NCBI RefSeq assembly: GCF_000024405.1
Contig: NC_013517.1
Span: 1 to 64,000 of the forward strand
DNA from: Sebaldella termitidis ATCC 33386
GTDB lineage: Bacteria > Fusobacteriota > Fusobacteriia > Fusobacteriales > Leptotrichiaceae
Direction of reading: 5' to 3'
Length of the DNA: 64,000 nt
The translations under genes were made by a program, and so were the position numbers. Shown piece after piece: positions 33,307-47,006 of the stretch. Each line of letters opens with the position of its first letter. The first letter of the stretch is position 1. The notes below the pieces were generated by a model. That model did no database searches. It saw only the letters and a list, made by a program, of their open reading frames with translations, and was not told the DNA's origin.

Positions 33307-34998
33307 TTACATTTTTTTCTTCGGCAGATGAAGAGCCTTTCCAAGACAGTCAGCACATGCCTCCAGTATTGCTTCCGAGAATGTAGGGTGTGCATAGATC
33401 AGCTCTGAAGCTTCCTCTATTGTTATCTCCATTTCCATCAAGATTACTCCTGCACTTATCATCTCCGTCGCCTTACTCCCTATTACATGTACTCCCAGTA
33501 TCTCTCCGTAATTATCATCACAGATTACCTTTACAAATCCTTCTTCCTCACTTGAAGCTATCGCTCTCCCGTTGGCTCCAAAGTTAAATCTTCCTGTTCT
33601 TATCTTTCCGTATTTCTTTAACGCTTCTTCTTCTGTCAGTCCCACTGATGCTATCTCTGGAAGAGTATACACACATTTCGGCGTATTATCCAGTCTTACC
33701 TCTTCTCTTCCTCCCAGTGCATTTCCTGCTGCCGTTTCTCCCATCTTAAAGGCTGAATGGGCTAACATCGATAATCCATTTATATCTCCTGCTGCATAAA
33801 CTCCCGCTATACTTGTTTCCATATATTCATTTACTATAAGCCTTCCTCTGTCCTGCTTTATTTCCAATCCATCCACACAGCTTAGGTCTGCCTCTCTTCC
33901 TATTGAGAAAAGTACATAGTCGCTGCTTAAGCTCTCTCCGCTCTTTAATACTGTCTCTATCTCTTTTCCCTTATCCTTAAATCCTGTTACCTGTTTATCT
34001 GTCAGAAGCTTTATCCCTTTTTTCTTAAATATCTTTTCCAGCTCCTGTGATATCTCCTTATCATTGAAAGGTAAAAGGTTTGACATTGCTTCCACTATTG
34101 TTACTTCTGTTCCGTATCCTCTGAATATCTCCGCAAACTCACAGCCTATTACTCCTCCTCCGACTATAACCAGTCTTTCAGGTACTTTATTAAGGTCTAG
34201 TATCGTTGTACTTGTCAGTATCTTATCACTGTCTATTCCGGGTATATTCAGATATCTTGTTTTTGATCCTCCTGCAAGGATTATCTTCTTACCTTTCAGT
34301 ACCTGTCCGTCTTCCAGTGTTACTTTCTTTCCTTCTCCAAGCTTTCCTGCTGTACTGTATACATCTACGCCGTAGCTTCTCAGCAAGCCTCCCACTCCCT
34401 GTGAAAGCTTCTTTGTTACCTTATTCTTAAATTCCACTGCCTTTGTCAGATCTGATATATTCTTTGTTACCTTTATATCCAGTCCTCTTGACTCTGCTTT
34501 TTCTGCTTCTTCCAATATTTCTATATTCTTTATATATGTTTTGGTAGGAATACAGCCTCTGTTCAGACATGTTCCTCCAAGCTCTCTTTTTTCTACTAAA
34601 GCTGTTTTGGCTCCAAGCTGGGATGCCTTGTTGGCTGATATATATCCTGCCGGTCCTCCGCCTATTACTATTACATCATATTCTTTTTCATCTGATGTCT
34701 TTGTTTCGGTCTTTACTTCCTCTTTCTTTTCTGCTTCTTTTACTTCGCTTACACTTTCTCCTTTTTCTCCAATATAGCCTATTACTGTAAATACCGGCAG
34801 TACTTCATTCTCAAATCTTACTTTCTTTAGAAGATAACCCGAGCTCTCGGCTTCTACCTCCATATTTACTTTATCTGTCAGTATTTCGACTATTGGTTCC
34901 CCTTCTTTTATGGCTTCTCCTTCTTCCTTCAGCCACTTTATTATAGTTCCTTCTTCCATTGACATTCCTGCTTTAGGCATTATTATTTCTACTGACAT
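33307..34998 (-). CDS. lpdA: Dihydrolipoyl dehydrogenase (E3) with N-terminal lipoyl domain
   Basis: The E3 flavoenzyme that reoxidises dihydrolipoamide using NAD. The protein has 563 residues: a lipoyl domain at 1-85 with the lipoylation site K43 in TDKVNME, an Ala/Lys/Glu linker, then the FAD/NAD oxidoreductase. FAD binding is GGGPAG at 113-118, the redox disulfide is C144-C149 in GGTCLNRGC, a second GGGVIG binds NAD, and the catalytic HPTFSE lies near the C-terminus. The lipoyl domain is nearly identical to that of the adjacent E2. It is the last gene of the complex, 19 bases after E2. Confidence 0.96.
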   Translation of the reverse strand: MSVEIIMPKAGMSMEEGTIIKWLKEEGEAIKEGEPIVEILTDKVNMEVEAESSGYLLKKVRFENEVLPVFTVIGYIGEKGESVSEVKEAEKKEEVKTETKTSDEKEYDVIVIGGGPAGYISANKASQLGAKTALVEKRELGGTCLNRGCIPTKTYIKNIEILEEAEKAESRGLDIKVTKNISDLTKAVEFKNKVTKKLSQGVGGLLRSYGVDVYSTAGKLGEGKKVTLEDGQVLKGKKIILAGGSKTRYLNIPGIDSDKILTSTTILDLNKVPERLVIVGGGVIGCEFAEIFRGYGTEVTIVEAMSNLLPFNDKEISQELEKIFKKKGIKLLTDKQVTGFKDKGKEIETVLKSGESLSSDYVLFSIGREADLSCVDGLEIKQDRGRLIVNEYMETSIAGVYAAGDINGLSMLAHSAFKMGETAAGNALGGREEVRLDNTPKCVYTLPEIASVGLTEEEALKKYGKIRTGRFNFGANGRAIASSEEEGFVKVICDDNYGEILGVHVIGSKATEMISAGVILMEMEITIEEASELIYAHPTFSEAILEACADCLGKALHLPKKKM

Positions 34999-35017
34999 AT
35001 TATTCCTTTCTATCCTA

Positions 35018-36346
35018 TTATATTAACAGACTATAAGGGTCTTCTATTAATTTCTTTACATACTGCATAAACTCTGCTCCAAGTGCTCCGTCTATTACTC
35101 TGTGATCAAATGTTGCACTAAGGTAAATTACTTTCTTTACTGATATTTTTCCTGCTTTTGCCACAGGCTTTTCTTCTATTGTTCCTACTCCTATTATACA
35201 GCTGTTTGGCTGGTTTATTATCGGATTAAAGTAATGAACTCCATACATTCCAAGATTGCTTAATGTTATTGTACTTCCGCTCTGTTCTGCTGCTCCCAGT
35301 TTTCCTTCTCTTGCTTTTTTGATCAGATCTTTTCCTTCTGTAAGTATATTTCTTATTCCTTTATCTTCTGTATTCTTTACTACAGGCACCATTAATACCC
35401 CGTTCCCTGATACTGCAAAGCCTACATTTATCTCTTTATGACAAAGGATTCCTTTATCTGTTAATGATACATTTATATCCGGGTATTTTCTTACTCCTCT
35501 GCTTACTGCCAGAATAAGAAGATCATTTATTGTCAGCTTTTCTCCTGTTTCATCCATCAGCGGTGCGGCTATTTTATCTTTCAGTTTTAGTAATTTATTT
35601 ACTCCTACTTCTATATTAAGTGTAAATGTCGGTGCTGAGAACTGACTTTCTGTCATTCTGTCCCCTATTACTTTTCTTATTCCTGAATATGGTTTCAGCT
35701 CTGCTTCTTTTGATATTATTTCCGGAGCTGCATTAAGAACAAGATCTCTTTTGAATATCTTTCCTTTTGCTCCTGTTCCGCTTATACCGTCCAGGTCTAT
35801 TCCTTCCTGTCCTGCTATTTTTCTTGCAAGAGGAGTAGCCTTTACTGTACTTCCTGCTGCGAAGCTTTCCACATCTGCAAGCTGGACTCTTCCTTTCGGT
35901 CCTGAGCCTGGTATATCCCCGAGGTTCAGATTATTATCTCTTGCTTTCTTTCTTGCTGCTGGTGTTGCCCTGTTTAGTTTATCTGACTGCATAAGAGATT
36001 TATTAAAGAAGACAGAGTTTTCTTCTGTTTCCTTTTTGTCAGGTTTCTTTTCATCCTTGATTACTTCCGCTGTTTTGGCTTTTTCTTCTCTTTCACTTAC
36101 GGTTTCACCTTTCTCACCTATATATCCTATTACTGTAAATACCGGCAGCACTTCATCTTCAAATCTTACTTTTTTTATCAGAAAACCTGAGCTTTCAGCC
36201 TCTACTTCCATATTAACCTTATCTGTTAATATTTCTACTATAGGCTCCCCTTCTTTTATTTCATCTCCTTCACTTTTCAGCCATTTTACTATTGTTCCTT
36301 CTTCCATTGACATTCCTGCCTTTGGCATTATTATCTCTACTGACAT
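35018..36346 (-). CDS. Dihydrolipoamide acyltransferase (E2) of a 2-oxoacid/acetoin dehydrogenase complex
   Basis: The core enzyme that carries the acyl group on lipoate and passes it to CoA. The protein has 442 residues: a lipoyl domain (1-85, K43), two peripheral subunit-binding-like segments (ATPAARKKARDNNL and ATPLARKIAGQEG), and a catalytic domain ending with the DHRVIDG active site. The gene order E1alpha, E1beta, E2, E3 is shared by pyruvate and acetoin complexes, so the substrate is not fixed by sequence. AAGGAGG precedes the ATG, and the gap from E1beta is 39 bases. Confidence 0.93.
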   Translation of the reverse strand: MSVEIIMPKAGMSMEEGTIVKWLKSEGDEIKEGEPIVEILTDKVNMEVEAESSGFLIKKVRFEDEVLPVFTVIGYIGEKGETVSEREEKAKTAEVIKDEKKPDKKETEENSVFFNKSLMQSDKLNRATPAARKKARDNNLNLGDIPGSGPKGRVQLADVESFAAGSTVKATPLARKIAGQEGIDLDGISGTGAKGKIFKRDLVLNAAPEIISKEAELKPYSGIRKVIGDRMTESQFSAPTFTLNIEVGVNKLLKLKDKIAAPLMDETGEKLTINDLLILAVSRGVRKYPDINVSLTDKGILCHKEINVGFAVSGNGVLMVPVVKNTEDKGIRNILTEGKDLIKKAREGKLGAAEQSGSTITLSNLGMYGVHYFNPIINQPNSCIIGVGTIEEKPVAKAGKISVKKVIYLSATFDHRVIDGALGAEFMQYVKKLIEDPYSLLI

Positions 36347-36385
36347 GTTTCCTCCTTCTTAGAAAGTTCTAAAAGCGGTTTTCTT

Positions 36386-37369
36386 TTATTTTCTGTTCAT
36401 TGCCTTATATATTGCTTCTGTTATATCTTCCTTACTTGGTACTACATAGGCTTCCAGCTTAGGGTTATATGGTATAGGTGTATTTTTTCCCGAAAGTCTT
36501 ATTATCTCTGAATCAAGATAATCAAATGCTTCGCTTTCCACTACTTCTGATACTATTTCCCCTGCATAGCTTCCTCTTTTTACCGCTTCATTAACTACTA
36601 TAAGTCTTCCTGTTTTGATTACAGAATTCTTTATTGTTTCTATATCAAGAGGTACAAGTGTTCTCGGATCAATTACTTCTACATCTATTCCGTCTTTTGC
36701 TGCTTCTTCTGCTGCTTCAAGAACTCTCGGAAGCATTCTTCCATATGTAACTACAGTAACATCTTTACCGGTTCTTTTTATATCAGCAACACCTAAAGGG
36801 ATAGTATATTCTTCCTCAGGTACTTCGCCTTTTGTTCTGTACAGAAGCTTCTGTTCCACGAAGATAACAGGATTATTATCTCTGATAGAACTTTTTAGAA
36901 GACCTTTTACATCATAAGGTGTAGAAGGTGCAACAACTTTCAGTCCCGGAATATGACAGAACCATGCTTCCAGACTTTGTGAATGCTGGGCGGCAGCTCC
37001 TGTACCTGATCCTGCAGGACATCTTAATACAAAGGGAACCTGTGCTTTACCGCCGAACATATATCTCATTTTAGCTGCCTGGTTAACAATGGCATCCATA
37101 GCAATAGTAGAAAAGTCCATAAACATAAGTTCTGCTATTGGTCTCATACCTGTAACTGCCGATCCAGCAGCAGCACCGGCAATAACTGCTTCAGATATCG
37201 GAGTATCTCTTACTCTCTCTTCACCGAATTCATCTATCATTCCTACAGATACACCAAAGGCTCCGCCGTATATACCTACATCTTCCCCTAACAGATATAC
37301 ATTTTCATCCCTTCTCATTTCTTCCGACATAGCTTCTCTGATTGCTTCTGCATATGTTATTTCTCTCAT
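36386..37369 (-). CDS. Dehydrogenase E1 component, beta subunit
   Basis: A 327-residue transketolase-like beta subunit of a thiamine diphosphate-dependent E1, for pyruvate or acetoin. Family features are [13 protein letters not shown] at the start, [14 protein letters not shown], the conserved [22 protein letters not shown] segment, and a C-terminal domain with [11 protein letters not shown]. It pairs with E1alpha upstream across a 142-base gap that contains an imperfect inverted repeat (AACAC...GTGTT), so its level may be tuned separately. AGGAGG precedes the ATG. Confidence 0.93.
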
Positions 37370-37511
37370 TTTTTTCCTCCTAGTGTTTTGTCTAACTTAA
37401 TTTCAAAAAACATAGACCTCTTAATGTCAAAACACTTGTGCCCCAAGCTGACTCTCATATTTTAAAATACAGATAAGGCAGGGTGCTTGTGTTCTTGCTT
37501 ACTTTTTATGC

Positions 37512-38474
37512 TTAATCAGCATATACATCAGTCAATGCTGTTTCCAATTCAGGATCAGGTGAATTATTAGCAAATTCCACTGCCTTTTCTATATCTGCCT
37601 TAGCCTGTTCCTCTATTGCAGTTAATTCCGCTTCTTTAAATATTTTTTCGCTTACAAGATACTTTTTCATTCTTTCTATAGGGTCCTTTGATTTCCAGTC
37701 CTCTATTTCTTCCTTTGTTCTGTATACATTGGCATCACTCTTTGAGTGACCGAGCCATCTGTAAGTTTTGCTTTCCACAAGTACAGGTCCGTTTCCTTCC
37801 CTTACATACTTAAATATTTCAAGCATTTTATCATAAAGTCCCACAGCATCATTTCCGTCAACTATATGTCCGGGAATACCGTAGCTTGATGCTCTGTCTG
37901 CGATATTCGTAATATTCATGTGTCTTTCCATTGACATAGACATACCGTAAAGATTGTTTTCGCAATAAAAGATAACAGGAAGCTTCCATATCGATGCCAG
38001 ATTAAGAGCCTCATGAAAACTGCCTTCATTAGCAGCACCATCCCCAAAAAAGCAAAGTACAATTTTTCCTGTTTTTTTCATTTGCTGTGTTAATGCAGCA
38101 CCTACCGAGAGACCATGTCCTCCACCCACTACACCGTTAGCTCCGAGATTTCCAGAATCAATATCGGCAATGTGCATAGAACCGCCTTTACCTTTACAGT
38201 AACCCGTAGCCTTACCAAGAAGCTCGGCCATCATTTTATTAAGGTCTACTCCTTTACCTATTACCTGACTGTGTCCTCTGTGTGTAGAAGTAATTAAGTC
38301 GCCGTCTTCAAGTGCCATGCAGGGAGCTACTCCCGAGGCTTCCTCACCCATAGAAAGGTGTGTAGTTCCGTGAACCATTCCTCTTGAAAAGAACCATGAT
38401 ACTTTTTGTTCAAAGGCTCTTGCCTCATTCATTCTTTTGTACATTTCTCTATAGATATCTTTTTTTTCTGACAT
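37512..38474 (-). CDS. Dehydrogenase E1 component, alpha subunit
   Basis: A 320-residue thiamine diphosphate-dependent alpha subunit. The cofactor motif GDGAANEG...N is clear (about residues 144-178), as are the RGHSQVIGKG loop and the HSKSDANVYR phosphorylation-loop region. The opening GMVHGTTHLSMGEEA resembles both pyruvate and acetoin dehydrogenase alpha subunits; no acetoin accessory genes (acoR, acoX) are present, so the substrate stays open. It starts only 16 bases after the small membrane protein gene, which places the whole complex in the same transcriptional direction as the PTS locus. Confidence 0.92.
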   Translation of the reverse strand: MSEKKDIYREMYKRMNEARAFEQKVSWFFSRGMVHGTTHLSMGEEASGVAPCMALEDGDLITSTHRGHSQVIGKGVDLNKMMAELLGKATGYCKGKGGSMHIADIDSGNLGANGVVGGGHGLSVGAALTQQMKKTGKIVLCFFGDGAANEGSFHEALNLASIWKLPVIFYCENNLYGMSMSMERHMNITNIADRASSYGIPGHIVDGNDAVGLYDKMLEIFKYVREGNGPVLVESKTYRWLGHSKSDANVYRTKEEIEDWKSKDPIERMKKYLVSEKIFKEAELTAIEEQAKADIEKAVEFANNSPDPELETALTDVYAD

Positions 38475-38490
38475 TTTTTTATCTCCTTTT

Positions 38491-38964
38491 CTATCGATTT
38501 TCTTTCACTCTTCTGCTTCTATGGTTATATTTCAGCTGGTTAGGACAGATAAGTCTTTCCAGTTCCATAATATTCAGATATAAATTCTCGCTGTTCTCGT
38601 AAGACTTGGTATCCAGCCAGTATCTTCCCTTGAGCAGACTGTACTTATTTATTCGCAGATAAAGTCTTTTATTTGCAAGTTCTTTTGTCATCATATATTT
38701 CAAATCCTTTATTTCATAAACATCTTCCTTGTGATATCCCCTTAGAACGAGTTTATGACTGTCCAGCTCTATTTCCAGGGGCTTTACTCCTGCGATATAA
38801 ATATTAAACAGTTCGTAGCATGAAGCCAGAATAATAAAGGTATATATATTTATATTGAAATTAAAAATATTTTTTATAACTGCATAAATCAGCAGAAAAA
38901 CTATAAATATTGAGGTAAGTGTAACAGTAATAAAATATTTTTTCTTATTATATTTATATGTCAT
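38491..38964 (-). CDS. Small membrane protein with C-terminal PH-like domain
   Basis: A 157-residue protein with two hydrophobic segments (about residues 12-32 and 40-60), followed by a polar strand-rich part (LEIELDSHKLVLRGYHKEDVYEI) like the bacterial PH-like domains found in small membrane proteins. I start at the ATG at 38964 because GGAGGA sits 5-10 bases upstream; a longer start at 38979 would put that site inside the gene. It lies 18 bases after the IIB-like gene and 16 before E1alpha. Function unknown. Confidence 0.65.
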   Translation of the reverse strand: MTYKYNKKKYFITVTLTSIFIVFLLIYAVIKNIFNFNINIYTFIILASCYELFNIYIAGVKPLEIELDSHKLVLRGYHKEDVYEIKDLKYMMTKELANKRLYLRINKYSLLKGRYWLDTKSYENSENLYLNIMELERLICPNQLKYNHRSRRVKENR

Positions 38965-38982
38965 TTTTCCTCCAGACAATTT

Positions 38983-39255
38983 TTATAGGTGGCTCAGGAT
39001 TTCATCACAGGTTTTATCCATTCCCATTTTTGTGATAAAGGCTGTTCCCATTATGATAGGAATATCTGTTTTGATATCACTGGGTCCGATTACTACCAAG
39101 ACATCGGGATTTTCTTCCTCCAGCTTCATTTCATATATGTTTACTCCTTTTACCTCACACTCTACATTTTTATTTGCACAATAGTTCTTAATTGTTTCTA
39201 CTGCAAATTTCATTTTGTTTACTGAAGTTCCTGTTGCTACAAGTATTTTTTTCAT
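38983..39255 (-). CDS. PTS IIB-like protein lacking the active-site cysteine
   Basis: A 90-residue protein matching the galactitol-type IIB fold: the N-terminal strand KKILVATGTS, a helix, VLVVIGPSDI, and a closing helix. In true IIB enzymes the first strand ends in ACGTG, whose Cys carries the phosphate. Here the codon is ACA, giving T8 (VATGTS). It cannot be phosphorylated in the normal way. The frame is intact, with AAGGAGG before the ATG. It lies between an SDR gene and a membrane protein gene. A regulatory or scaffold role is possible; loss of function is the alternative. Confidence 0.8.
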   Translation of the reverse strand: MKKILVATGTSVNKMKFAVETIKNYCANKNVECEVKGVNIYEMKLEEENPDVLVVIGPSDIKTDIPIIMGTAFITKMGMDKTCDEILSHL

Positions 39256-39364
39256 GAATTCCTCCTTAGATTATAATTGTGATAAATTACTAAACGAGAC
39301 AAAAGTATTTCAGCGGGTGTTTTTTAACAGAAAGGTACTGATCTGCCAAAATACTGTTTTTTTA

Positions 39365-40123
39365 TTACTGATATGTTCGGCCGCCATCCATTAGTATGAT
39401 CTGACCGTGAATATATGTAGATTTCTCACTCGCGAGAAAACAAGCAAGATTGCCGATATCTTCAGGATATCCGATTCTTCTTATAGGAATCTGTTCGATT
39501 AATTCCTGTTTTGATTTTTCATCAGGATAAAGCTGGTCCAGAATGTGAGATGCAATAACTCTCGGCGCAATGGCATTTACATTTATTCCTGCTTTTCCGT
39601 ATTCCTTTGCCAAGGCTCTCATAAGACCGTGCTGTCCTGATTTTGATGCTGTATAGTGTACACCGCCGCCTCCGCCTGTAAAAGCTGATCCTGAACTGAT
39701 AAAGATAATACTTTTCCGGTCGTTTTCCTTTTTATCCAGCATAGAATCAATAAAAGCTTTTATAGTATAGAAAGAGCCTGACAGATTAATATCGATTACT
39801 TTTTTCCATTCTTCGTCAGAAACTTCTTTGAATGAATGCTTAAAGCTTATACCTGCATTTACAACCAAAACATCGGTATTTCCAAGTTCGCTGCTTATTT
39901 TTTTCTGTGCTTCTGCGAGAGATTCAGGGTTGGTAACGTCACTGTTTATATACAGACCTTTTACATTATGACTTTTTATTTCATTGAGAGTTTTTTCTCC
40001 TTCTGTATCATTGAGGTCTAAAATAGCTACATTAGCTCCTTCCTTTGCCATGCAGAGAGCGATTCCCTTTCCTATTCCGTTGGCACCGCCTGTTATTACA
40101 CAGACTTTATCTTTTAATAACAT
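39365..40123 (-). CDS. Short-chain dehydrogenase/reductase
   Basis: A 252-residue classical SDR. The NAD(P)-binding motif is TGGANGIGKG near residues 11-20, NAG lies in VVNAGIS, and the catalytic SSGS...YTASK (Ser, Tyr, Lys) is in order. Asp at the end of the second strand (ILDLND) favours NAD over NADP. The location among polyol-type PTS genes suggests oxidation of a polyol phosphate or a related sugar alcohol, as in sorbitol-6-phosphate dehydrogenases. AGGAGG precedes the ATG. A 109-base gap separates it from the IIB-like gene downstream. Confidence 0.9.
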   Translation of the reverse strand: MLLKDKVCVITGGANGIGKGIALCMAKEGANVAILDLNDTEGEKTLNEIKSHNVKGLYINSDVTNPESLAEAQKKISSELGNTDVLVVNAGISFKHSFKEVSDEEWKKVIDINLSGSFYTIKAFIDSMLDKKENDRKSIIFISSGSAFTGGGGGVHYTASKSGQHGLMRALAKEYGKAGINVNAIAPRVIASHILDQLYPDEKSKQELIEQIPIRRIGYPEDIGNLACFLASEKSTYIHGQIILMDGGRTYQ

Positions 40124-40320
40124 TTGTCCTCCTACAATATACTTTTTCTATCTATAAAAAATGTTTGTTTTCAAATTTAATTTTTTTATCTGCAATCAGA
40201 GATAAATATATACTTTAATTTACTCTTCCCTTTATAAAATCTGCATTACCTCTTTTACAAAGAGAAGAAAAGAAAGGATTGCTGAAAAGGAAATATTAGT
40301 TACTCTGACTGCAGGATATT

Positions 40321-40372
40321 GATTTTAGGTCTTGACCCGTAAAATCTGGCAAAACCTAAATCTCTTTTTTTC
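40321..40372 (+). terminator. Orphan plus-strand terminator-like hairpin
   Basis: GATTTTAGGTCTTG (40321-40334) pairs with CAAAACCTAAATC (40350-40362) with one bulge and one mismatch, followed by TCTCTTTTTTTC on the plus strand. No plus-strand gene lies upstream, so it may end an unannotated RNA. Confidence 0.4.
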
Positions 40373-40403
40373 TTTTATACGACTTTGGATAAAAGATTTT
40401 ATT

Positions 40404-40461
40404 AAAACAGGAAACCGGAGTTCCTCTGAATTGATACCGGAAGATTTCCGGCTCCTGTTTT
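40404..40461 (-). terminator. Terminator after PTS IIB gene
   Basis: AAAACAGGA (40404-40412) / TCCTGTTTT (40453-40461) enclose a second hairpin CCGGAA-GAT-TTCCGG. On the minus strand the T-run follows. Confidence 0.7.
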
Positions 40462-40486
40462 CAGCCCTGCAATATATTCAGTTTTG

Positions 40487-40771
40487 TTACTTATTCAGGA
40501 TTTCTATGATCTTATCAAGATCTTTGTCAACACCTATTCCTGTCAGGAATGAAACTGCTACAATAACAGGAATATCTTTTTTGCTTGTGTAAGCAGTAGT
40601 AGTAACTATCAAATCTACATTATCAGTTTTGTAAGGTAGCTCAGCAACTTTACACTGCTGAATATCTACATCTACACCTCTTTCCTTTAATAAAGTACTC
40701 ATCTTATTAACGACAACCGTTGAAGTGGCAATTCCTGTTCCGCATGCCACCATAATTTTCTTTTTGCCCAT
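40487..40771 (-). CDS. PTS galactitol-type IIB enzyme
   Basis: A 94-residue cytoplasmic phosphocarrier. The active-site cysteine is C10 in VACGTGIATS, which takes phosphate from IIA and gives it to the sugar bound to IIC. Overall it resembles GatB. It follows the second IIC gene by 21 bases and precedes a terminator, so it is the end of the core PTS transcript. AGGAGG precedes the ATG. Confidence 0.93.
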   Translation of the reverse strand: MGKKKIMVACGTGIATSTVVVNKMSTLLKERGVDVDIQQCKVAELPYKTDNVDLIVTTTAYTSKKDIPVIVAVSFLTGIGVDKDLDKIIEILNK

Positions 40772-40792
40772 ATTTCTTCCTCCTTAAAAATA

Positions 40793-42157
40793 TTATTCTG
40801 TTTCATTTTCATATTGTTTCTTTATGTCATTTCTCGTCCAGTACCACATTCCTGCGTAAGCAACGAGAGCAACAATACCTGCTATAAACATAGGGGTATT
40901 TTTATAATCAATGAGCTTCAAAATAATCCACAGAGTAATGTGACAGCTCATATCAATACCTGAAATCATAGTAGCTCCTGCCGGGAACTCAAATCCTACC
41001 GCATGTCCCATTTGAGTAGTAAGCGGTCCAAGGTTCGTAGCCATGAAAAATACCATACACAAAGTAATTATAGAGTTTATAAGTCCTCTGAAGATATCTC
41101 CCCTTGAAGCTGCCACTGCCCAGATAACAGTAAAAGGTAATACTGCAAGATCCGCAAATGGAAGCATTCTGTTATATGGAAGTATTACTGAGAGAAATAT
41201 AGTAATAGGAACCATAAGCAATGCAACAGTCATATTAGACGGATTACCAATTACCACTGCGGCATCCAGTCCGATATATACATCTTTTCCGGGAAATCTT
41301 TTAGAAATAAAATCCTTGGCACCTTCTGATATTGGTGTAAGACCTTCCATAAGAAGTGCAACCATTTTTGGCATCAGTACCATTACTGCACCCATCTGGA
41401 TTCCCAGAGACAGAATGTCTGTAACAGTATATCTTCCCAGGATTCCTAAAAGTACTCCTAAAATAATTCCCAAAATTAACGGCTCTCCAAATATTCCTAT
41501 TTTTTCTTTCAGCTTTTCTCCGTCAAGATTTATTTTGTTTATTCCGGGTATTTTATCCTCTACTTTATTTAGAGCATACATAATAGGTGCGAAATTGACT
41601 GTTTCCCCGTGCGGGAGTGATATACCCGGCAGTCCGAAGTGATGTTCTACCGCGGGAGCTGTCCAGTCTGCGAGTTTAAATATAATAGTAGCATTTATCA
41701 AGGTAAGAACAATTGCTAAAATTAAACTGTTAGTGGCATAATAAACCATTGCACCCGGAAATATCAAGTGCCAGTAGTTCCATAAGTCGACGTCCATAGT
41801 TTTAGTAATATTAAAATATAAAAGTATCATGTTAAGTATAAAAATAATTGGTATTAACAGTGCTGCAATTGGTGTAGCAAATGTTATTGCAGCTCCGATA
41901 GGCCATCCTACATCGATAATGTCAAAATTAAGTCCCAGTGATGTAACCAGTGCCTCAGCGGCTTTACCAAGTGATGATGTTAAAAGACCTATTACAAGGT
42001 TTACACCTACGAATCCAACACCGACAGTAACTCCGGCTCTAAAAGATTTTGCCAGTCCCTGTCCCAGAATTAATCCGAAAATAGTAAGAATGATAGGAAG
42101 CATAGTGGAAGGACCAAGTCCTAGAATAAAATCAACCAAACTTTGAATAATTCCCAT
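40793..42157 (-). CDS. PTS galactitol-type IIC permease (second copy)
   Basis: A 454-residue membrane permease of the GatC family, with about ten or more hydrophobic segments. The conserved LGLNFDIIDVGWP, HHFGLPGISLPHG and PFADLAVLPF segments are present, as is the GLDAAVVIGNPS region. It is the partner of the IIB gene 21 bases downstream. It is homologous along its whole length to the other IIC (42838-44199), so two permeases share one locus and probably one IIA. AAAGGAGAG precedes the ATG. Confidence 0.93.
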   Translation of the reverse strand: MGIIQSLVDFILGLGPSTMLPIILTIFGLILGQGLAKSFRAGVTVGVGFVGVNLVIGLLTSSLGKAAEALVTSLGLNFDIIDVGWPIGAAITFATPIAALLIPIIFILNMILLYFNITKTMDVDLWNYWHLIFPGAMVYYATNSLILAIVLTLINATIIFKLADWTAPAVEHHFGLPGISLPHGETVNFAPIMYALNKVEDKIPGINKINLDGEKLKEKIGIFGEPLILGIILGVLLGILGRYTVTDILSLGIQMGAVMVLMPKMVALLMEGLTPISEGAKDFISKRFPGKDVYIGLDAAVVIGNPSNMTVALLMVPITIFLSVILPYNRMLPFADLAVLPFTVIWAVAASRGDIFRGLINSIITLCMVFFMATNLGPLTTQMGHAVGFEFPAGATMISGIDMSCHITLWIILKLIDYKNTPMFIAGIVALVAYAGMWYWTRNDIKKQYENETE

Positions 42158-42176
42158 ATTTCTCTCCTTTTACAAT

Positions 42177-42821
42177 TTATTTTTGGCCATAAACGTTTTT
42201 AAACAATTCATTGGCTCTTTTTATCTCTTCTTCGGGAAGCTCTTCCGGCTTACCTATTGTTCTGGTTAGATAGTAGACTTTTGCTGAATCTTCAAGCATA
42301 ACTGCCGCAGTCAGTGCATGTGATACATTTTCACCATATGTGAAAACACCGTGGCTTTCCAGTAAAACTGCCTTTTGATCTCCTATTTTTTCAATGATGT
42401 GTTCCCCGAGCTCGTCAGAACCTACAGGAGCATACTTTGAAAGAGGAACTTTTCCTCCTACTTCATTTGCCATAGTAGTGGAAATAACAGGAATGTCTTC
42501 TTTTAATACTGCAAAACAGCTTGCAAATGTAGAGTGTGTATGTATAATTCCGTTAATATCTTTTTTAGCTCTGTATATCTGCAGGTGTGTTTTTAAGTCT
42601 GAGCTGGGTTTTCTTTTTCCTTCTATAATGTTTCCGTCAAGATCTGTTACTGTGATATCATCAGGAGTAAGAGTATCATACTCCATTCCGCTCGGAGTCA
42701 TAACAATATATCCTGTTTCCAAATCCCGGCCGCTTACATTTCCGCCGGTAAGAGTTATTAATTTATACTCTTTTAGTTTTTTTCCTGCATCAATTACTTC
42801 CAGTTTCAATTTTTCCAGCAT
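42177..42821 (-). CDS. Class II aldolase/epimerase, AraD-like
   Basis: A 214-residue zinc enzyme of the class II aldolase/adducin family. Metal ligands are H94, H96 and H157 (IIHTHS, ESHG). The phosphate-binding GGNVSGRD and PSG pieces are typical. The catalytic position reads PSSD (D75) as in L-ribulose-5-phosphate 4-epimerases; true aldolases have PSSE. The epimerase Asp near residue 120 is not kept (NEVGG). So epimerase or aldolase activity is open. It sits between the two IIC genes and should act on the imported phosphorylated sugar. Confidence 0.85.
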   Translation of the reverse strand: MLEKLKLEVIDAGKKLKEYKLITLTGGNVSGRDLETGYIVMTPSGMEYDTLTPDDITVTDLDGNIIEGKRKPSSDLKTHLQIYRAKKDINGIIHTHSTFASCFAVLKEDIPVISTTMANEVGGKVPLSKYAPVGSDELGEHIIEKIGDQKAVLLESHGVFTYGENVSHALTAAVMLEDSAKVYYLTRTIGKPEELPEEEIKRANELFKNVYGQK

Positions 42822-42837
42822 ATCTCCTCCTCACTTT

Positions 42838-44199
42838 TTATTCTTCTGTATTCTCTGCAGATGCGTCCTTACGGTTTTCTTTTATAATTCTCTGTCTGTT
42901 ATAAACAGCCATTCCTATTGCTATAACAGCAAGTATTGACACACCGATAAAAGGAATGCTCATTAATCTTGTAAACAGCCAGCTTAAAGGATTTGCCCCG
43001 TCACAGATACTTGAAATCATAGTTGCACCCGGAGGCATTGTGAAGTTAGCGTCTATAGCCATCTGTGTATGAAGCGGAGCCAGATTTGTAGCTATAAGAA
43101 GTCCGACAGCCATATTTATAAATCCTATTATAAATGTTCTGAATACGTTTCCTTTAGTGATAGGTATAAGCATAACCAGAGAAAATGGTATAACAGCCAG
43201 ATCGGCAAAAGGAAGAACTCTGTTTCCAGGCAGTATAGCTGCAAGTATAATTGTAATAGGTACTAATACAAGAGATACTGAAAGTGTAGTAGGGTGTCCG
43301 ATTCCAACTGCAGAATCAAGTCCGATATATATTTTTCCTCTGTTTTTGAATCTTTTGCTTACGAATTCCTGTGCGGAATCAGATATAGGTATTAATCCCT
43401 CCATAAGCATCGCAGCCATTTTAGGTATAAGTACAAGTACACCTCCAAGTGTGATACCTAATACAAGGATGCCTTTCAGGTTATATCCTGCGGCAATTCC
43501 GATTACAATTCCTATAACTGTACCGATAATAAGCGGTTCACCAAATACTCCGAATCTTTTTTGAAGAGTTTCAGTATCAATTTCTATTTTGTTTATTCCA
43601 GGAATAAGATCCAAAATTTTATTTACTACCAATGCTCCCGGAACAAAGGCTCCTGAAAATCCGTGAGGCAGTGAAATACCCGGAAGACCGATATATTTTT
43701 CTATTCCCGGTGCAGTAAGATCGGCTATTACCATTATGATTATCATATTTAGAACAGCAGCTATAATTCCGTACATAATACTTCCTGTAGCTCCTGTAAC
43801 AAGTGCACCTGTAAATGCAAAGTGCCAAAAATCCCAAATATCTATATCCAGAGTTTGTGTAGTGTTAGTAAGGAGCATAACGATATTTACTACAAGTCCG
43901 ATAGGAATAATAAGGGCTCCTACTCTTGAAGCAAATGCAATCGCAGCTGCAGCGGGCCATCCTACATCTATAACAGTAAGATTAAGACCAAGTCTGGTAA
44001 CCATTTCCTGCGCTGCAGGACCAAGGCTTCCGCCCAATAAACCAATAACTAAATTCAAACCAATAAATCCTACACCGACAGTTAATCCGGCTCTTAAAGC
44101 TTTTCCAAATTTTGCTCCCAGAATGAGACCGAATATTGTGATAATAATCGGCATCATTACCTGAGGACCAAGATCAACGATATAGTTCAAAATTCCCAT
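42838..44199 (-). CDS. PTS galactitol-type IIC permease (first copy)
   Basis: A 453-residue GatC-family membrane permease. It shares LGLNLTVIDVGWP, IGLPGISLPHG, PFADLAVIPF and GLDSAVGIGHP with the second IIC, consistent with an old duplication. A charged C-terminus (NRQRIIKENRKDASAE) extends into the cytoplasm. The gene is preceded by a 238-base leader after the IIA gene and followed 16 bases later by the AraD-like gene. Substrate cannot be told from sequence. Confidence 0.92.
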   Translation of the reverse strand: MGILNYIVDLGPQVMMPIIITIFGLILGAKFGKALRAGLTVGVGFIGLNLVIGLLGGSLGPAAQEMVTRLGLNLTVIDVGWPAAAAIAFASRVGALIIPIGLVVNIVMLLTNTTQTLDIDIWDFWHFAFTGALVTGATGSIMYGIIAAVLNMIIIMVIADLTAPGIEKYIGLPGISLPHGFSGAFVPGALVVNKILDLIPGINKIEIDTETLQKRFGVFGEPLIIGTVIGIVIGIAAGYNLKGILVLGITLGGVLVLIPKMAAMLMEGLIPISDSAQEFVSKRFKNRGKIYIGLDSAVGIGHPTTLSVSLVLVPITIILAAILPGNRVLPFADLAVIPFSLVMLIPITKGNVFRTFIIGFINMAVGLLIATNLAPLHTQMAIDANFTMPPGATMISSICDGANPLSWLFTRLMSIPFIGVSILAVIAIGMAVYNRQRIIKENRKDASAENTEE

Positions 44200-44348
44200 T
44201 TTGTAAACCTCCTAATTTTATATTTTGAAAAGATATATAAAGTGTTATTGATATAAAAGCAATACTAATGTTTACATATATTTTCAGTATTTTACCCGGT
44301 AAAAGTTCCGGTAAAAAATGAAATACCAATGTTTTAAGGATAAAAATG

Positions 44349-44395
44349 CAGTATTCTGTTTTGCTGCATATCCCGTTTTTCCCGGCAGAATGCTG
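44349..44395 (-). promoter_or_regulatory. Hairpin in leader between PTS IIA and IIC
   Basis: CAGTATTCTG (44349-44358) pairs with CAGAATGCTG (44386-44395) with one mismatch. Two CCGGTAAAA repeats lie nearby (about 44297 and 44311). No clear T-run follows on the minus strand, so an attenuator or operator is as likely as a terminator. Confidence 0.4.
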
Positions 44396-44437
44396 AAAAG
44401 TTCACTCTGTTCCGCAAGGGATAAATAGTATATTATG

Positions 44438-44890
44438 CTAGCTTTCTAGGTGTTTTTTTACTATTTTTATAAGATTGTCTTTATCAGAAGCAAGCATTTT
44501 ATAAAATTCTTCTTTGTCTCCAAAAAAACTTATTAATTTAGTAAGAACATCAATTTTGTCCTCTTTTTCACCGAAAGCAATTACACAGACTACCTCTACA
44601 GGAGTATCTTTGCTGTGATCTTCGGCACATTTGAAATCAACCTTCTTTTTTAGCGTGGCTATGGACAGAGTAGATTTTACAACATGTTCTACCTCGGTAT
44701 GCGGCATGGCAATACTGTATTCACCAAAATCCAGTCCTGTGGGGTAAGCAGCTTCTCTTTCCAGAAGGCCGTCATAAAAGCTGGATTTTACATAGCCGTT
44801 TTTTTCAAGGTTATCTGATAAAAATCTTAATACTTCATTAGAGTTTTCGCATTCAAGATTTGAAAAAATTAAGTTATCATCAATTATCAT
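44438..44890 (-). CDS. PTS fructose/galactitol-type IIA protein
   Basis: A 150-residue phosphotransferase IIA. The phosphorylated histidine is H64 in SIAMPHTEVEH, the family signature. It accepts phosphate from HPr and passes it to IIB. It begins four bases after the end of the regulator gene and so is translated from the same mRNA. It is the only free IIA in the locus and presumably serves both permeases. Confidence 0.93.
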   Translation of the reverse strand: MIIDDNLIFSNLECENSNEVLRFLSDNLEKNGYVKSSFYDGLLEREAAYPTGLDFGEYSIAMPHTEVEHVVKSTLSIATLKKKVDFKCAEDHSKDTPVEVVCVIAFGEKEDKIDVLTKLISFFGDKEEFYKMLASDKDNLIKIVKKHLES

Positions 44891-44894
44891 AGTT

Positions 44895-47006
44895 TTATAT
44901 CTTCCTTTCTATGTATTTTTTTATAGTTTTATGTATTTCCGCCTGATTATTTTTTCTTTCTAGCTCTGAAAAGAATTCGTCATTTTCTGCAAGTGTTACC
45001 AAATCATTTAATGTCTCTGATATTTCTTCTTTTGAAAGACATGATAATCCAAATATATACATTAACTTTTTATTATCCGGAAAAGTGACAGGATAATTTA
45101 ATTTCAGGAAAGAAACTCCGGTTTTAAATACATCATTGTTATTTTCTGCGTGAAGCAGCATAAGTCTTTGGTTAAGCACCATAAAGGTACCGCATTCGTC
45201 TACCAGATTTTTCATACTTTGTATATAGCTTTCCTCTATACAGCCGTCCTCCAGCAGGATATTTCCTATAATCTTTACTACATTCCGCCAGTTTGTTTCT
45301 TTTTCCTTAATGACAATATTTTCTTTATTCAGATAATCCAAAAGATTTTTATTTCTCCTTTCTATAATTTTTTCTTTTCTATTGTCATATATTTGGCCGC
45401 TGAATTTTTGTGTGAGAATATCTCCTATTTTTTCAAGGTCGTCATTCTCGAATTCTTTTTCTATAACCTCCAGTATTTCTGTTACTCCGATTGTTCGTTT
45501 TTTTCTTTTAAACCCTTTATTTTCAAGAAGAATTTTATCTTTTTCAGAGAGAATCACGTTTACCTGAATTACTTCTTTTTCCACTTTTACAGTTTCAGGT
45601 ATTTTTACAGTACTGATTATAAAATCAATATTTTTTAGATTGTAATCTTTTAGTCTGTAATATGGAATAAGATCGACAACATTTATATCAAAGGTATCCA
45701 AAAGCTCCTGAGCCAGAAGGCTTGAGCTCGCATAACCGCTTCCGCAGACAAAGAGAACATTACTGAATTCATTCACTTTTTCCTTTATTCTGTCAATGGC
45801 AAGCTTGAAGTGAACTGTAAACAGAGCGACTTCATCATCTTTTATTTTATGTCCTATGTATTTTTCCACATCAATAAGGGCATTTTTTACCGTAAAAAAA
45901 AGTTCCTGACAGTTTTCAAGTATTTCTTCAAAGCCTATATTGGGAAGGTAAATATCATTTTTTATACGGTAGATAGTAGGTTTTATGTGATTAAGAAGAC
46001 CCTCGAACAGCAGTTTGTCTTTTGAAATGTCAACACTGCAGTTTTTGCTCACCTCACCGATAAGCTTTCTTACGAGAATTTCCACTTCAATCCAGTTTTC
46101 ATAAAATGTATAACTGTAATTATAGGTATGACTCCCCAGAAAATACTCCGCCAGTTTCAGTATTTCTTCTTCGTTAAAATGAACATCATATTTTTTCTCT
46201 AAAATATCAATATTTTCTGTGAGTATTTTATATTCTTTTGTCCTTATTATATATGTGTTATAAAAATCGCTTTGTGTGATGATATTATTTTGGTTTATTC
46301 TTAGGATGGCTATGGAGAAATATATGATAAGCAATTCGAAGACTTCATTAGAGGTGTTTTCTACAAGTTTACTCTCGATATCTTTTAAATAATTTTTTAA
46401 AAAATTCTGGTCAATTTGTTTTATATAATTATTTAAAATGTCTTTTATCTGGTAATCTATAAATAAGTTCATCTTATTTGCAGTGTTCTCAAAATTAAAT
46501 AGCTTATCCATGAATATTTTTATCATTTCTTTTCTTAGTGCTATTTCTGATGAATCTATGTAGAAACCTTTTATGTTGTTATACCTGAAACTGAGATCTT
46601 TGCTTTTTAGAAAGTCTTTTAATTTTTTTATGTCACTTTTTATTGTGAGCTCACTTACCTGGAATAATGAGGCCAGATTTATGATATTTAGTTTCCGGGA
46701 TGTATTAAAGAGTATATAAATATAGATATATTCCACTCTTTCTATATCTAAATATTTATAATCCCTGGATTCAATTTTTTTTAAAAAATTACTTAAAGAA
46801 AATTTTTCATGCTGATATAGAATCCCCTTGGAGTTTTTATCTATAACAGGGAAATCATATTTTTTCAGATAATAGTTTAGATTTTCTATACTGTATCTTA
46901 TAGTACGGAGACTCACTCCGAAGTCTTCGGCAAGATATTCCATGTCTATATTATCTGAATTGGTAAGTATATTCAAAATTTCGATTTCCCTCTTAGTAAG
47001 AGCCAT
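44895..47006 (-). CDS. PRD-containing transcriptional activator (MtlR/LicR type)
   Basis: A 703-residue regulator controlled by PTS phosphorylation. Domains in order: an N-terminal winged helix (about 1-65, including SLRTIRYSIENL), a second helix-turn-helix (near residues 100-145), two PRD domains (about 170-390), a GatB-like IIB domain with its cysteine in VCGSGYASS, and a C-terminal IIA-like domain with a His in MLLHAE. This architecture acts at promoters rather than as an RNA antiterminator. It heads the PTS operon, and a TATAAT-like -10 lies upstream on the minus strand (47158-47163). GAAGGAGG precedes the ATG. Confidence 0.9.
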   Translation of the reverse strand: MALTKREIEILNILTNSDNIDMEYLAEDFGVSLRTIRYSIENLNYYLKKYDFPVIDKNSKGILYQHEKFSLSNFLKKIESRDYKYLDIERVEYIYIYILFNTSRKLNIINLASLFQVSELTIKSDIKKLKDFLKSKDLSFRYNNIKGFYIDSSEIALRKEMIKIFMDKLFNFENTANKMNLFIDYQIKDILNNYIKQIDQNFLKNYLKDIESKLVENTSNEVFELLIIYFSIAILRINQNNIITQSDFYNTYIIRTKEYKILTENIDILEKKYDVHFNEEEILKLAEYFLGSHTYNYSYTFYENWIEVEILVRKLIGEVSKNCSVDISKDKLLFEGLLNHIKPTIYRIKNDIYLPNIGFEEILENCQELFFTVKNALIDVEKYIGHKIKDDEVALFTVHFKLAIDRIKEKVNEFSNVLFVCGSGYASSSLLAQELLDTFDINVVDLIPYYRLKDYNLKNIDFIISTVKIPETVKVEKEVIQVNVILSEKDKILLENKGFKRKKRTIGVTEILEVIEKEFENDDLEKIGDILTQKFSGQIYDNRKEKIIERRNKNLLDYLNKENIVIKEKETNWRNVVKIIGNILLEDGCIEESYIQSMKNLVDECGTFMVLNQRLMLLHAENNNDVFKTGVSFLKLNYPVTFPDNKKLMYIFGLSCLSKEEISETLNDLVTLAENDEFFSELERKNNQAEIHKTIKKYIERKI

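What the first reader, a model, noticed from the sequence alone, without database searches (positions are those of the whole stretch)
38983..39255. PTS IIB-like protein with active-site Cys replaced by Thr in the same locus as a normal IIB
The strand that reads ACGTG in the true IIB (C10) here reads ATGTS (T8), so no phosphocysteine can form. The rest of the fold is intact. Having a dead IIB beside a live one suggests a sensor, competitor or scaffold rather than a redundant enzyme.
Basis: partly seen in the sequence, partly recalled or inferred. Interest (0 to 1): 0.7.

Follow-up and report, generated by a model that had tools for sequence, protein, structure and literature searches.

The report
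Ancient Cys-less PTS IIB-like protein family
A small protein that looks like a sugar-transport phosphate carrier but lacks the phosphate-carrying cysteine is not a broken copy: it belongs to an old, rare, unnamed family, found in fusobacteria, clostridia and bacilli next to sugar-alcohol breakdown genes, whose former active site has been rebuilt for another, still untested job.

Summary
Confirmed, on the minus strand: window 39255-38983 encodes a 90-residue, standalone GAT-type IIB-like protein with Thr8 where IIBs carry the phospho-Cys. It is intact, under purifying selection, and predicted with high confidence to keep the IIB fold. The Cys is not an isolated swap: Cys8, Thr14, Ser15 and Gly76, each invariant in 32 Cys-bearing relatives, are all lost. 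New residues are fixed around the same site (Ser11, Lys/Arg14, Asn39, Tyr/Phe41, Gly57). Thr8 itself is not conserved; orthologues have Thr, Ala or Gly, never Cys. These proteins form one clade spanning Fusobacteriota, Clostridia and Bacilli, rare and unmodelled in Pfam or NCBIfam. Members sit in polyol PTS/dehydrogenase/aldolase clusters, often beside a thiamine-dependent PDH-like complex or transketolase. A second Sebaldella copy sits beside a glucitol PTS, whose IIB is unrelated, which argues against a decoy for its own IIB. In one relative the neighbouring dehydrogenase has decayed and the second IIC is gone, yet this gene is intact. Best explanation: a repurposed IIB fold acting as a pathway-specific accessory, probably binding a phosphorylated intermediate, not a phosphocarrier. 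The exact mechanism is inferred.

The parts
38983..39255 (-). Cys-less GAT-type IIB-like protein ('IIB*'), 90 aa
39214..39237 (-). Remodelled active-site loop A7-T8-G9-T10-S11-V12-N13-K14 (Cys-IIBs: A-C-G-x-G-x-A-T, followed by S15)
   Evidence: coordinates read
38491..38964 (-). Small protein of about 157 aa, hydrophobic N-terminal part, no Pfam or NCBIfam match; likely ATG start at 38964 (the ORF list starts at TTG 38979). A relative sits beside the Cys-IIB in the Brevibacillus cluster; a homologue of that relative does so in clostridial clusters
   Evidence: start
37512..38474 (-). PDH-like E1 alpha (thiamine diphosphate enzyme)
   Evidence: TIGR03182, 356 bits, under its cut-off
36386..37369 (-). 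PDH-like E1 beta
35018..36346 (-). E2 lipoyl acyltransferase-like
33307..34998 (-). Dihydrolipoyl dehydrogenase (E3) with N-terminal lipoyl domain
39365..40123 (-). SDR dehydrogenase; only a decayed remnant in the relative L040
40124..40486 (-). Highly structured intergenic RNA, including a long inverted repeat just after the live IIB (terminator-like)
   Evidence: z -6.6; no Rfam match
40487..40771 (-). Canonical GAT-type IIB with active-site Cys
40793..42157 (-). EIIC-GAT, second copy (absent in relative L040)
42177..42821 (-). Class II aldolase / ribulose-5-phosphate epimerase family
42838..44199 (-). EIIC-GAT, first copy
44438..44890 (-). PTS EIIA_2-type IIA
44895..47006 (-). PRD activator (HTH, PRDs, Cys-containing IIB-like domain, IIA-like domain)

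Best explanation
The protein belongs to an ancient family of standalone IIB-fold proteins (here called IIB*) that gave up phosphotransfer early and took on a dedicated accessory role in polyol-phosphate catabolic modules. SHOWN by sequence: no phospho-acceptor Cys; one clade on one side of a branch; co-ordinated loss of the other invariant IIB loop residues; fixation of a new residue set (S11, K/R14, N39, Y/F41, G57); purifying selection between orthologues; recurrent siting in polyol PTS clusters. INFERRED: the retained but rebuilt loop at the strand ends binds a phosphorylated metabolite, for example the polyol-P or ketose-P made by the cluster, with K/R14 contacting the phosphate. The ligand-bound protein then acts on a cluster partner, as a sensor or adaptor, or less likely as a small enzyme, rather than carrying phosphate or blocking the live IIB.
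For: One clade against 32 Cys-IIBs: 100/100 support; still one side of a branch (87/97) with the active-site loop columns removed. C8, T14, S15 and G76 are 32/32 in Cys-IIBs and 0/12 in IIB*, while S11, N39 and G57 are 12/12 and K/R14 12/12 in IIB* and rare or absent in Cys-IIBs. Six of 7 group-specific positions lie in the loops at the strand ends (Fisher p 0.005, loop limits chosen by me). dN/dS about 0.03-0.09. The decoy reading is weakened by the Srl context. The relative L040 keeps IIB* intact although its SDR is a remnant and IIC2 is missing. In the window genome the two PDH modules are 98-99.8% identical at nucleotide level while the two IIB* just outside the block share only 42% of residues, so IIB* follows the uptake/pathway half and not the shared complex.
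Against: No ligand, partner or phenotype was tested. K/R14 binding a phosphate is deduced from position, not from a structure with ligand. Two clostridial copies lie outside any PTS cluster, one of them decaying, so an accessory role tied to a cluster is not universal. The set is small: about 10 independent loci, 12 sequences in the conservation test.
Confidence: 0.5

Rival explanations
1. Decoy or competitor: a non-phosphorylatable IIB that docks on IIA, IIC or the PRD activator of the neighbouring GAT PTS and throttles it, or sets the activator's state.
For: Most clustered loci hold a Cys-IIB as well as IIB*. Cys-less EIIB-Gat domains exist in PRD regulators: type I Mga has Ala in place of Cys, and the Mga EIIB-Gat domain is needed for oligomerisation (PMC11537053). 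MgaSpn and AtxA are among the structural matches.
Against: A second copy sits with an Srl glucitol PTS that has no GAT-type IIB. Four residues invariant in 32 Cys-IIBs, in the loops around the acceptor, are lost. One Clostridium copy has no PTS gene in the 16 kb around it.
Confidence: 0.2
2. Accessory or specificity subunit of the thiamine-dependent enzyme next door (PDH-like complex, transketolase), helping it to accept a sugar phosphate.
For: IIB* lies directly before, or one small gene before, E1 alpha in the two Sebaldella locus types and a Clostridiales MAG; after a split transketolase in G481; and in a cluster that ends in E1 alpha in G133.
Against: No thiamine enzyme is near it in B. 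daliensis, G543 or G698. PDH modules 98-99.8% identical accompany IIB* proteins only 42% identical.
Confidence: 0.15
3. Small enzyme: the rebuilt site (S11, K/R14, N39, Y/F41) catalyses a sugar-phosphate reaction such as isomerisation or mutarotation.
For: Group-specific conserved polar residues around one site.
Against: No catalytic residue set recognisable by homology; K14 is Arg in one member; no enzyme family match.
Confidence: 0.1
4. Relic on the way to loss, without function.
For: A Clostridium copy (G645) lies outside any PTS cluster and looks decayed: no start codon in frame, G9 to Val and G57 to Arg.
Against: Low dN/dS, 12/12 conserved new residues, spread over three bacterial groups, intact where its neighbours decayed.
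Confidence: 0.05

Closest known systems
GAT-family PTS IIB (GatB; PDB 1tvm, 5gqs)
   Same: Fold and length; 27% identity; best structural and sequence match
   Different: No Cys; T14, S15 and G76 replaced; below the Pfam and NCBIfam cut-offs
Cys-less EIIB-Gat domains of PRD virulence regulators (Mga, AtxA)
   Same: GAT-like IIB fold without the conserved Cys (PMC11537053, type I Mga); structural matches 5way and 4r6i
   Different: Those are domains fused to PRDs and DNA-binding domains; this is a free 90-residue protein in catabolic clusters with its own conserved residue set
EIIB-Gat domains of MtlR, ManR and LicR-type activators
   Same: Fold; the PRD activator in this window has such a domain, with Cys
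   Different: Phosphorylatable Cys; fused

Membership tests
PTS enzyme IIB, GAT family (functional phosphocarrier) | IIB fold | tested here: met
   Model pLDDT 93.1; 5gqs TM 0.85, Z 12.0, rmsd 2.0 over 89 residues
PTS enzyme IIB, GAT family (functional phosphocarrier) | Active-site Cys at the end of strand 1 | tested here: not met
   Thr8 here; T, A or G in all members, Cys 32/32 in Cys-IIBs
PTS enzyme IIB, GAT family (functional phosphocarrier) | Invariant Thr-Ser after the loop and Gly of the FLTG motif | tested here: not met
   K14, M15, K76
PTS enzyme IIB, GAT family (functional phosphocarrier) | Scores above curated family cut-offs | tested here: not met
   Pfam PTS_IIB 14.3 against 23.6 bits; NCBIfam GatB 36.4 against 95 bits
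PTS enzyme IIB, GAT family (functional phosphocarrier) | Accepts phosphate from IIA and passes it to sugar on IIC | not testable with these tools
   Needs a phosphotransfer assay
Cys-less EIIB-Gat regulator domain (Mga/AtxA type) | Fused to PRDs and a DNA-binding domain | tested here: not met
   Standalone ORF of 90 aa with its own start and stop
IIB* clade (defined here) | Groups apart from Cys-IIBs as one side of a branch | tested here: met
   100/100 with all columns, 87/97 without the loop columns
IIB* clade (defined here) | S11, K/R14, N39, Y/F41, P50, G57 present | tested here: met

The most novel reading that the evidence does not exclude
IIB* proteins are a new class of metabolite-binding adaptors made from a PTS subunit: each carries the specificity of one polyol pathway and plugs it into a shared lipoyl/thiamine ketolase complex, so that one complex (here two almost identical gene copies) can serve different imported polyols.
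Probability: 0.1. Interest if true: 0.75.

Novelty: new variant of a known kind. Interest (0 to 1): 0.5.

Why it matters
PTS IIB proteins are defined by their phosphocysteine. A standalone lineage that lost it before spreading or diverging across three bacterial groups, yet kept and rebuilt the site, shows a PTS subunit turned into something else outside the known regulator fusions. It is likely to be auto-annotated as 'PTS IIB', so phosphorelay reconstructions of such genomes may count a dead subunit as a live one. It also flags undescribed polyol pathways that join PTS uptake to a PDH-like or transketolase step.

Tried and rejected
Thr8 as an alternative phospho-acceptor: rejected as a family trait, because Ala and Gly members exist. 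Partner of the duplicated IIC: rejected, because L040 and several clustered loci have one IIC and keep IIB*. Partner of the SDR: not required, because L040 has only an SDR remnant. Strict thiamine-enzyme subunit: not general. Plasmid tblastn returned only matches of about 36% identity or less, annotated as ordinary IIB where annotated; I did not read their active sites. Two phylum-level searches turned out to cover the same Bacillota sample, so one was wasted. Rfam scan of 38900-44500: nothing. Paper searches for a Cys-less standalone IIB found nothing in the open-access library. The Sebaldella protein at G000:C1:3948521 (AGGLTQDKF) falls near the Gly-type members but on a very long branch, so I left it out of the conservation test.

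Full report
Observation. The finding's coordinates are right but the gene is on the minus strand (39255-38983). It encodes 90 residues, MKKILVATGTSVNKMKFAVETIKNYCANKNVECEVKGVNIYEMKLEEENPDVLVVIGPSDIKTDIPIIMGTAFITKMGMDKTCDEILSHL, with AAGGAGG ahead of the ATG. phmmer against the PDB finds GatB proteins 5gqs (3e-6) and 1tvm (1.5e-4), whose active Cys aligns with Thr8. The canonical IIB of the locus (40771-40487) and the IIB-like domain of the PRD activator both keep Cys. The window lies in a 4,418,842-base chromosome. From memory I take this to be Sebaldella termitidis ATCC 33386; no tool names the genome, though a 94%-identical relative is titled 'Fusobacteriales bacterium'.

Is it real and kept? 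Two other Sebaldella-group genomes have the orthologue, 98% and 94% identical, both Thr8. Codon differences are mostly silent (14-19 silent, 2-6 changing), dN/dS about 0.03-0.09, similar to the live IIB. In the relative L040 the SDR between IIB and IIB* survives only as a remnant and the second IIC is missing, yet IIB* is intact. L040 is a metagenome assembly, so this needs a second genome.

Family. A scan of GTDB genomes with the protein gave four relatives: one from a Fusobacteriales MAG, and three at 54-57%, Clostridium lacusfryxellense (L041), Brevibacillus daliensis (L042) and a Clostridiales MAG (L043), all ATGTS. Profile searches added Ala8 members (two genomes of the order of B. daliensis), Gly8 members (G481, G521, G543), one more Thr8 member (G698) and a decayed one (G645). 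Sebaldella has a paralogue with Ala8, and a third Sebaldella species has ATGVS in the same context. The clade is rare: with profile A1 at E 1e-10, a sample of 398 Bacillota held G101 (the centre itself), G481 and G521, all other hits being Cys-IIBs. With profile A2 at E 1e-14 the counts were 3 of 225, 1 of 295 and 2 of 398 genomes, centres included.

Phylogeny. In a maximum-likelihood tree of 46 proteins all 14 Cys-less proteins lie on one side of a 100/100 branch. Without the active-site loop columns they still do, at 87/97. Within the clade Thr, Ala and Gly interchange, so loss of Cys is shared while Thr is not. The tree is unrooted and has few columns.

The rebuilt site. Comparing 12 IIB* with 32 Cys-IIBs: C8, T14, S15 and G76 are invariant in Cys-IIBs and absent from IIB*. 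S11, N39, P50 and G57 are invariant, K/R14 and Y/F41 fixed as classes, in IIB* and rare or absent in Cys-IIBs. Six of seven group-specific positions fall in the loops at the strand ends that surround the former phospho-Cys (Fisher p 0.005; I drew the loop limits, so treat this as descriptive). This is a changed site, not a decayed one.

Structure. AlphaFold2 on an 8-sequence alignment gives pLDDT 93.1, pTM 0.83. Best matches are GAT IIBs: 5gqs TM 0.85, Z 12.0; then IIB cellobiose, mannitol and the Mga and AtxA IIB-like domains. The many receiver-domain and flavodoxin matches reflect a common alpha/beta fold.

Neighbours. (1) Window and its orthologues: PRD, IIA, IIC, aldolase, IIC, IIB, SDR, IIB*, small protein, E1 alpha, E1 beta, E2, E3 (L040 lacks IIC2 and an intact SDR). 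(2) Sebaldella Srl locus: DRL oxidoreductase, SrlA, SrlE, SrlB, IIB*, E1 alpha, E1 beta, E2, E3, and a gene resembling lipoate ligase (the last named by eye). (3) Clostridiales MAG: IIA, aldolase, IIB*, E1 alpha, E1 beta, E2, E3. (4) B. daliensis: GpsA-like, RpiB-like, PRD, IIA, IIC, IIB, small protein, SDR, SDR, IIB*. (5) G133: PRD, IIA, IIC, ADH, SDR, SDR, FGGY kinase, IIB*, GpsA-like, PRD, HPr-like, E1 alpha at the contig edge. (6) G481: IIA, IIC, IIB, small protein, ADH, SDR, RpiB, GpsA-like, HAD, split transketolase, IIB*, FGGY kinase, phosphohexomutase, aldolase; G543 similar without the transketolase. (7) G698: PRD, IIA, IIB, ADH, IIC, IIB*, GpsA-like, aldolase, SDR, ADH. (8) C. lacusfryxellense and G645: no PTS gene in the DNA held (G645's contig is under 5 kb). 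Genes not scored by a family search were named by eye from their sequence.

What the contexts say. The Srl locus matters most: its own IIB (SrlE, scored by NF049924) is of another family, so an IIB* there is hard to explain as a decoy for the local IIB. The thiamine enzyme is a frequent but not constant neighbour. In the window genome the two PDH modules match at 98-99.8% over about 5.2 kb, stopping just short of IIB*, and the two IIB* share 42%. I read this as IIB* belonging to the uptake/pathway half. It is one genome's history and could also reflect where a gene conversion tract happened to end.

Mechanism. My best reading is a repurposed IIB fold that binds a phosphorylated intermediate at the rebuilt loop and acts as sensor or adaptor for its pathway. 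Shown: the sequence facts above. Inferred: ligand, partner and output. The decoy, complex-subunit and small-enzyme rivals stay open at lower weight.

Comparison with the known. Cys-less EIIB-Gat domains are known in PRD regulators: type I Mga has Ala in place of the Cys and the domain is needed for oligomerisation (PMC11537053). I found no description of a free-standing Cys-less IIB family in the open-access library, which lacks most subscription journals. In scans of the family members, Pfam gave no match above its cut-off for PTS_IIB (14.3 against 23.6 bits for the window protein), and NCBIfam scored the window protein 36.4 against a cut-off of 95 for GatB.

Noticed in passing
window 33313-38489 and G000:C1 about 4006645-4011927 (L044 4646-9928): The PDH-like module (E1 alpha to E3) exists twice in the genome at 98-99.8% nucleotide identity (E1 beta and E2 100%), each copy next to a different PTS: recent duplication or gene conversion.
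   Followed up: partly
L044 10052-14064 (G000:C1 about 4012051-4016063): Glucitol-type PTS, the genome's only DRL (DXR-II-type) oxidoreductase, IIB* and the PDH-like module together. Possible catabolism of 2-C-methylerythritol via 1-deoxyxylulose-5-P to acetyl-CoA and glyceraldehyde-3-P; speculation. PMC3847144 lists one DXR-II for S. termitidis; mutant E. coli PDH can make DXP (PMC3424233).
   Followed up: partly
window 38491-38964; L082 11361-11849; L088 10692-11159: A small protein without Pfam match recurs in these clusters (22-38% identity); one member has a weak, sub-cut-off bacterial PH-domain hit.
   Followed up: partly
window 40124-40486: Intergenic RNA between IIB and SDR folds far better than shuffles (z -6.6), with a long inverted repeat; repeat kept in L040; no Rfam match.
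   Followed up: partly
G000:C1:3948521-3948787 (L045 9501-9821): Another Cys-less IIB-like protein (AGGLTQDKF) in a separate PTS cluster that also has a Cys-IIB; long branch, placement unsure.
   Followed up: partly
L090 4260-4610 (G645): Decayed IIB* copy in a Clostridium-order genome: no in-frame start, G9 to Val, G57 to Arg.
   Followed up: no
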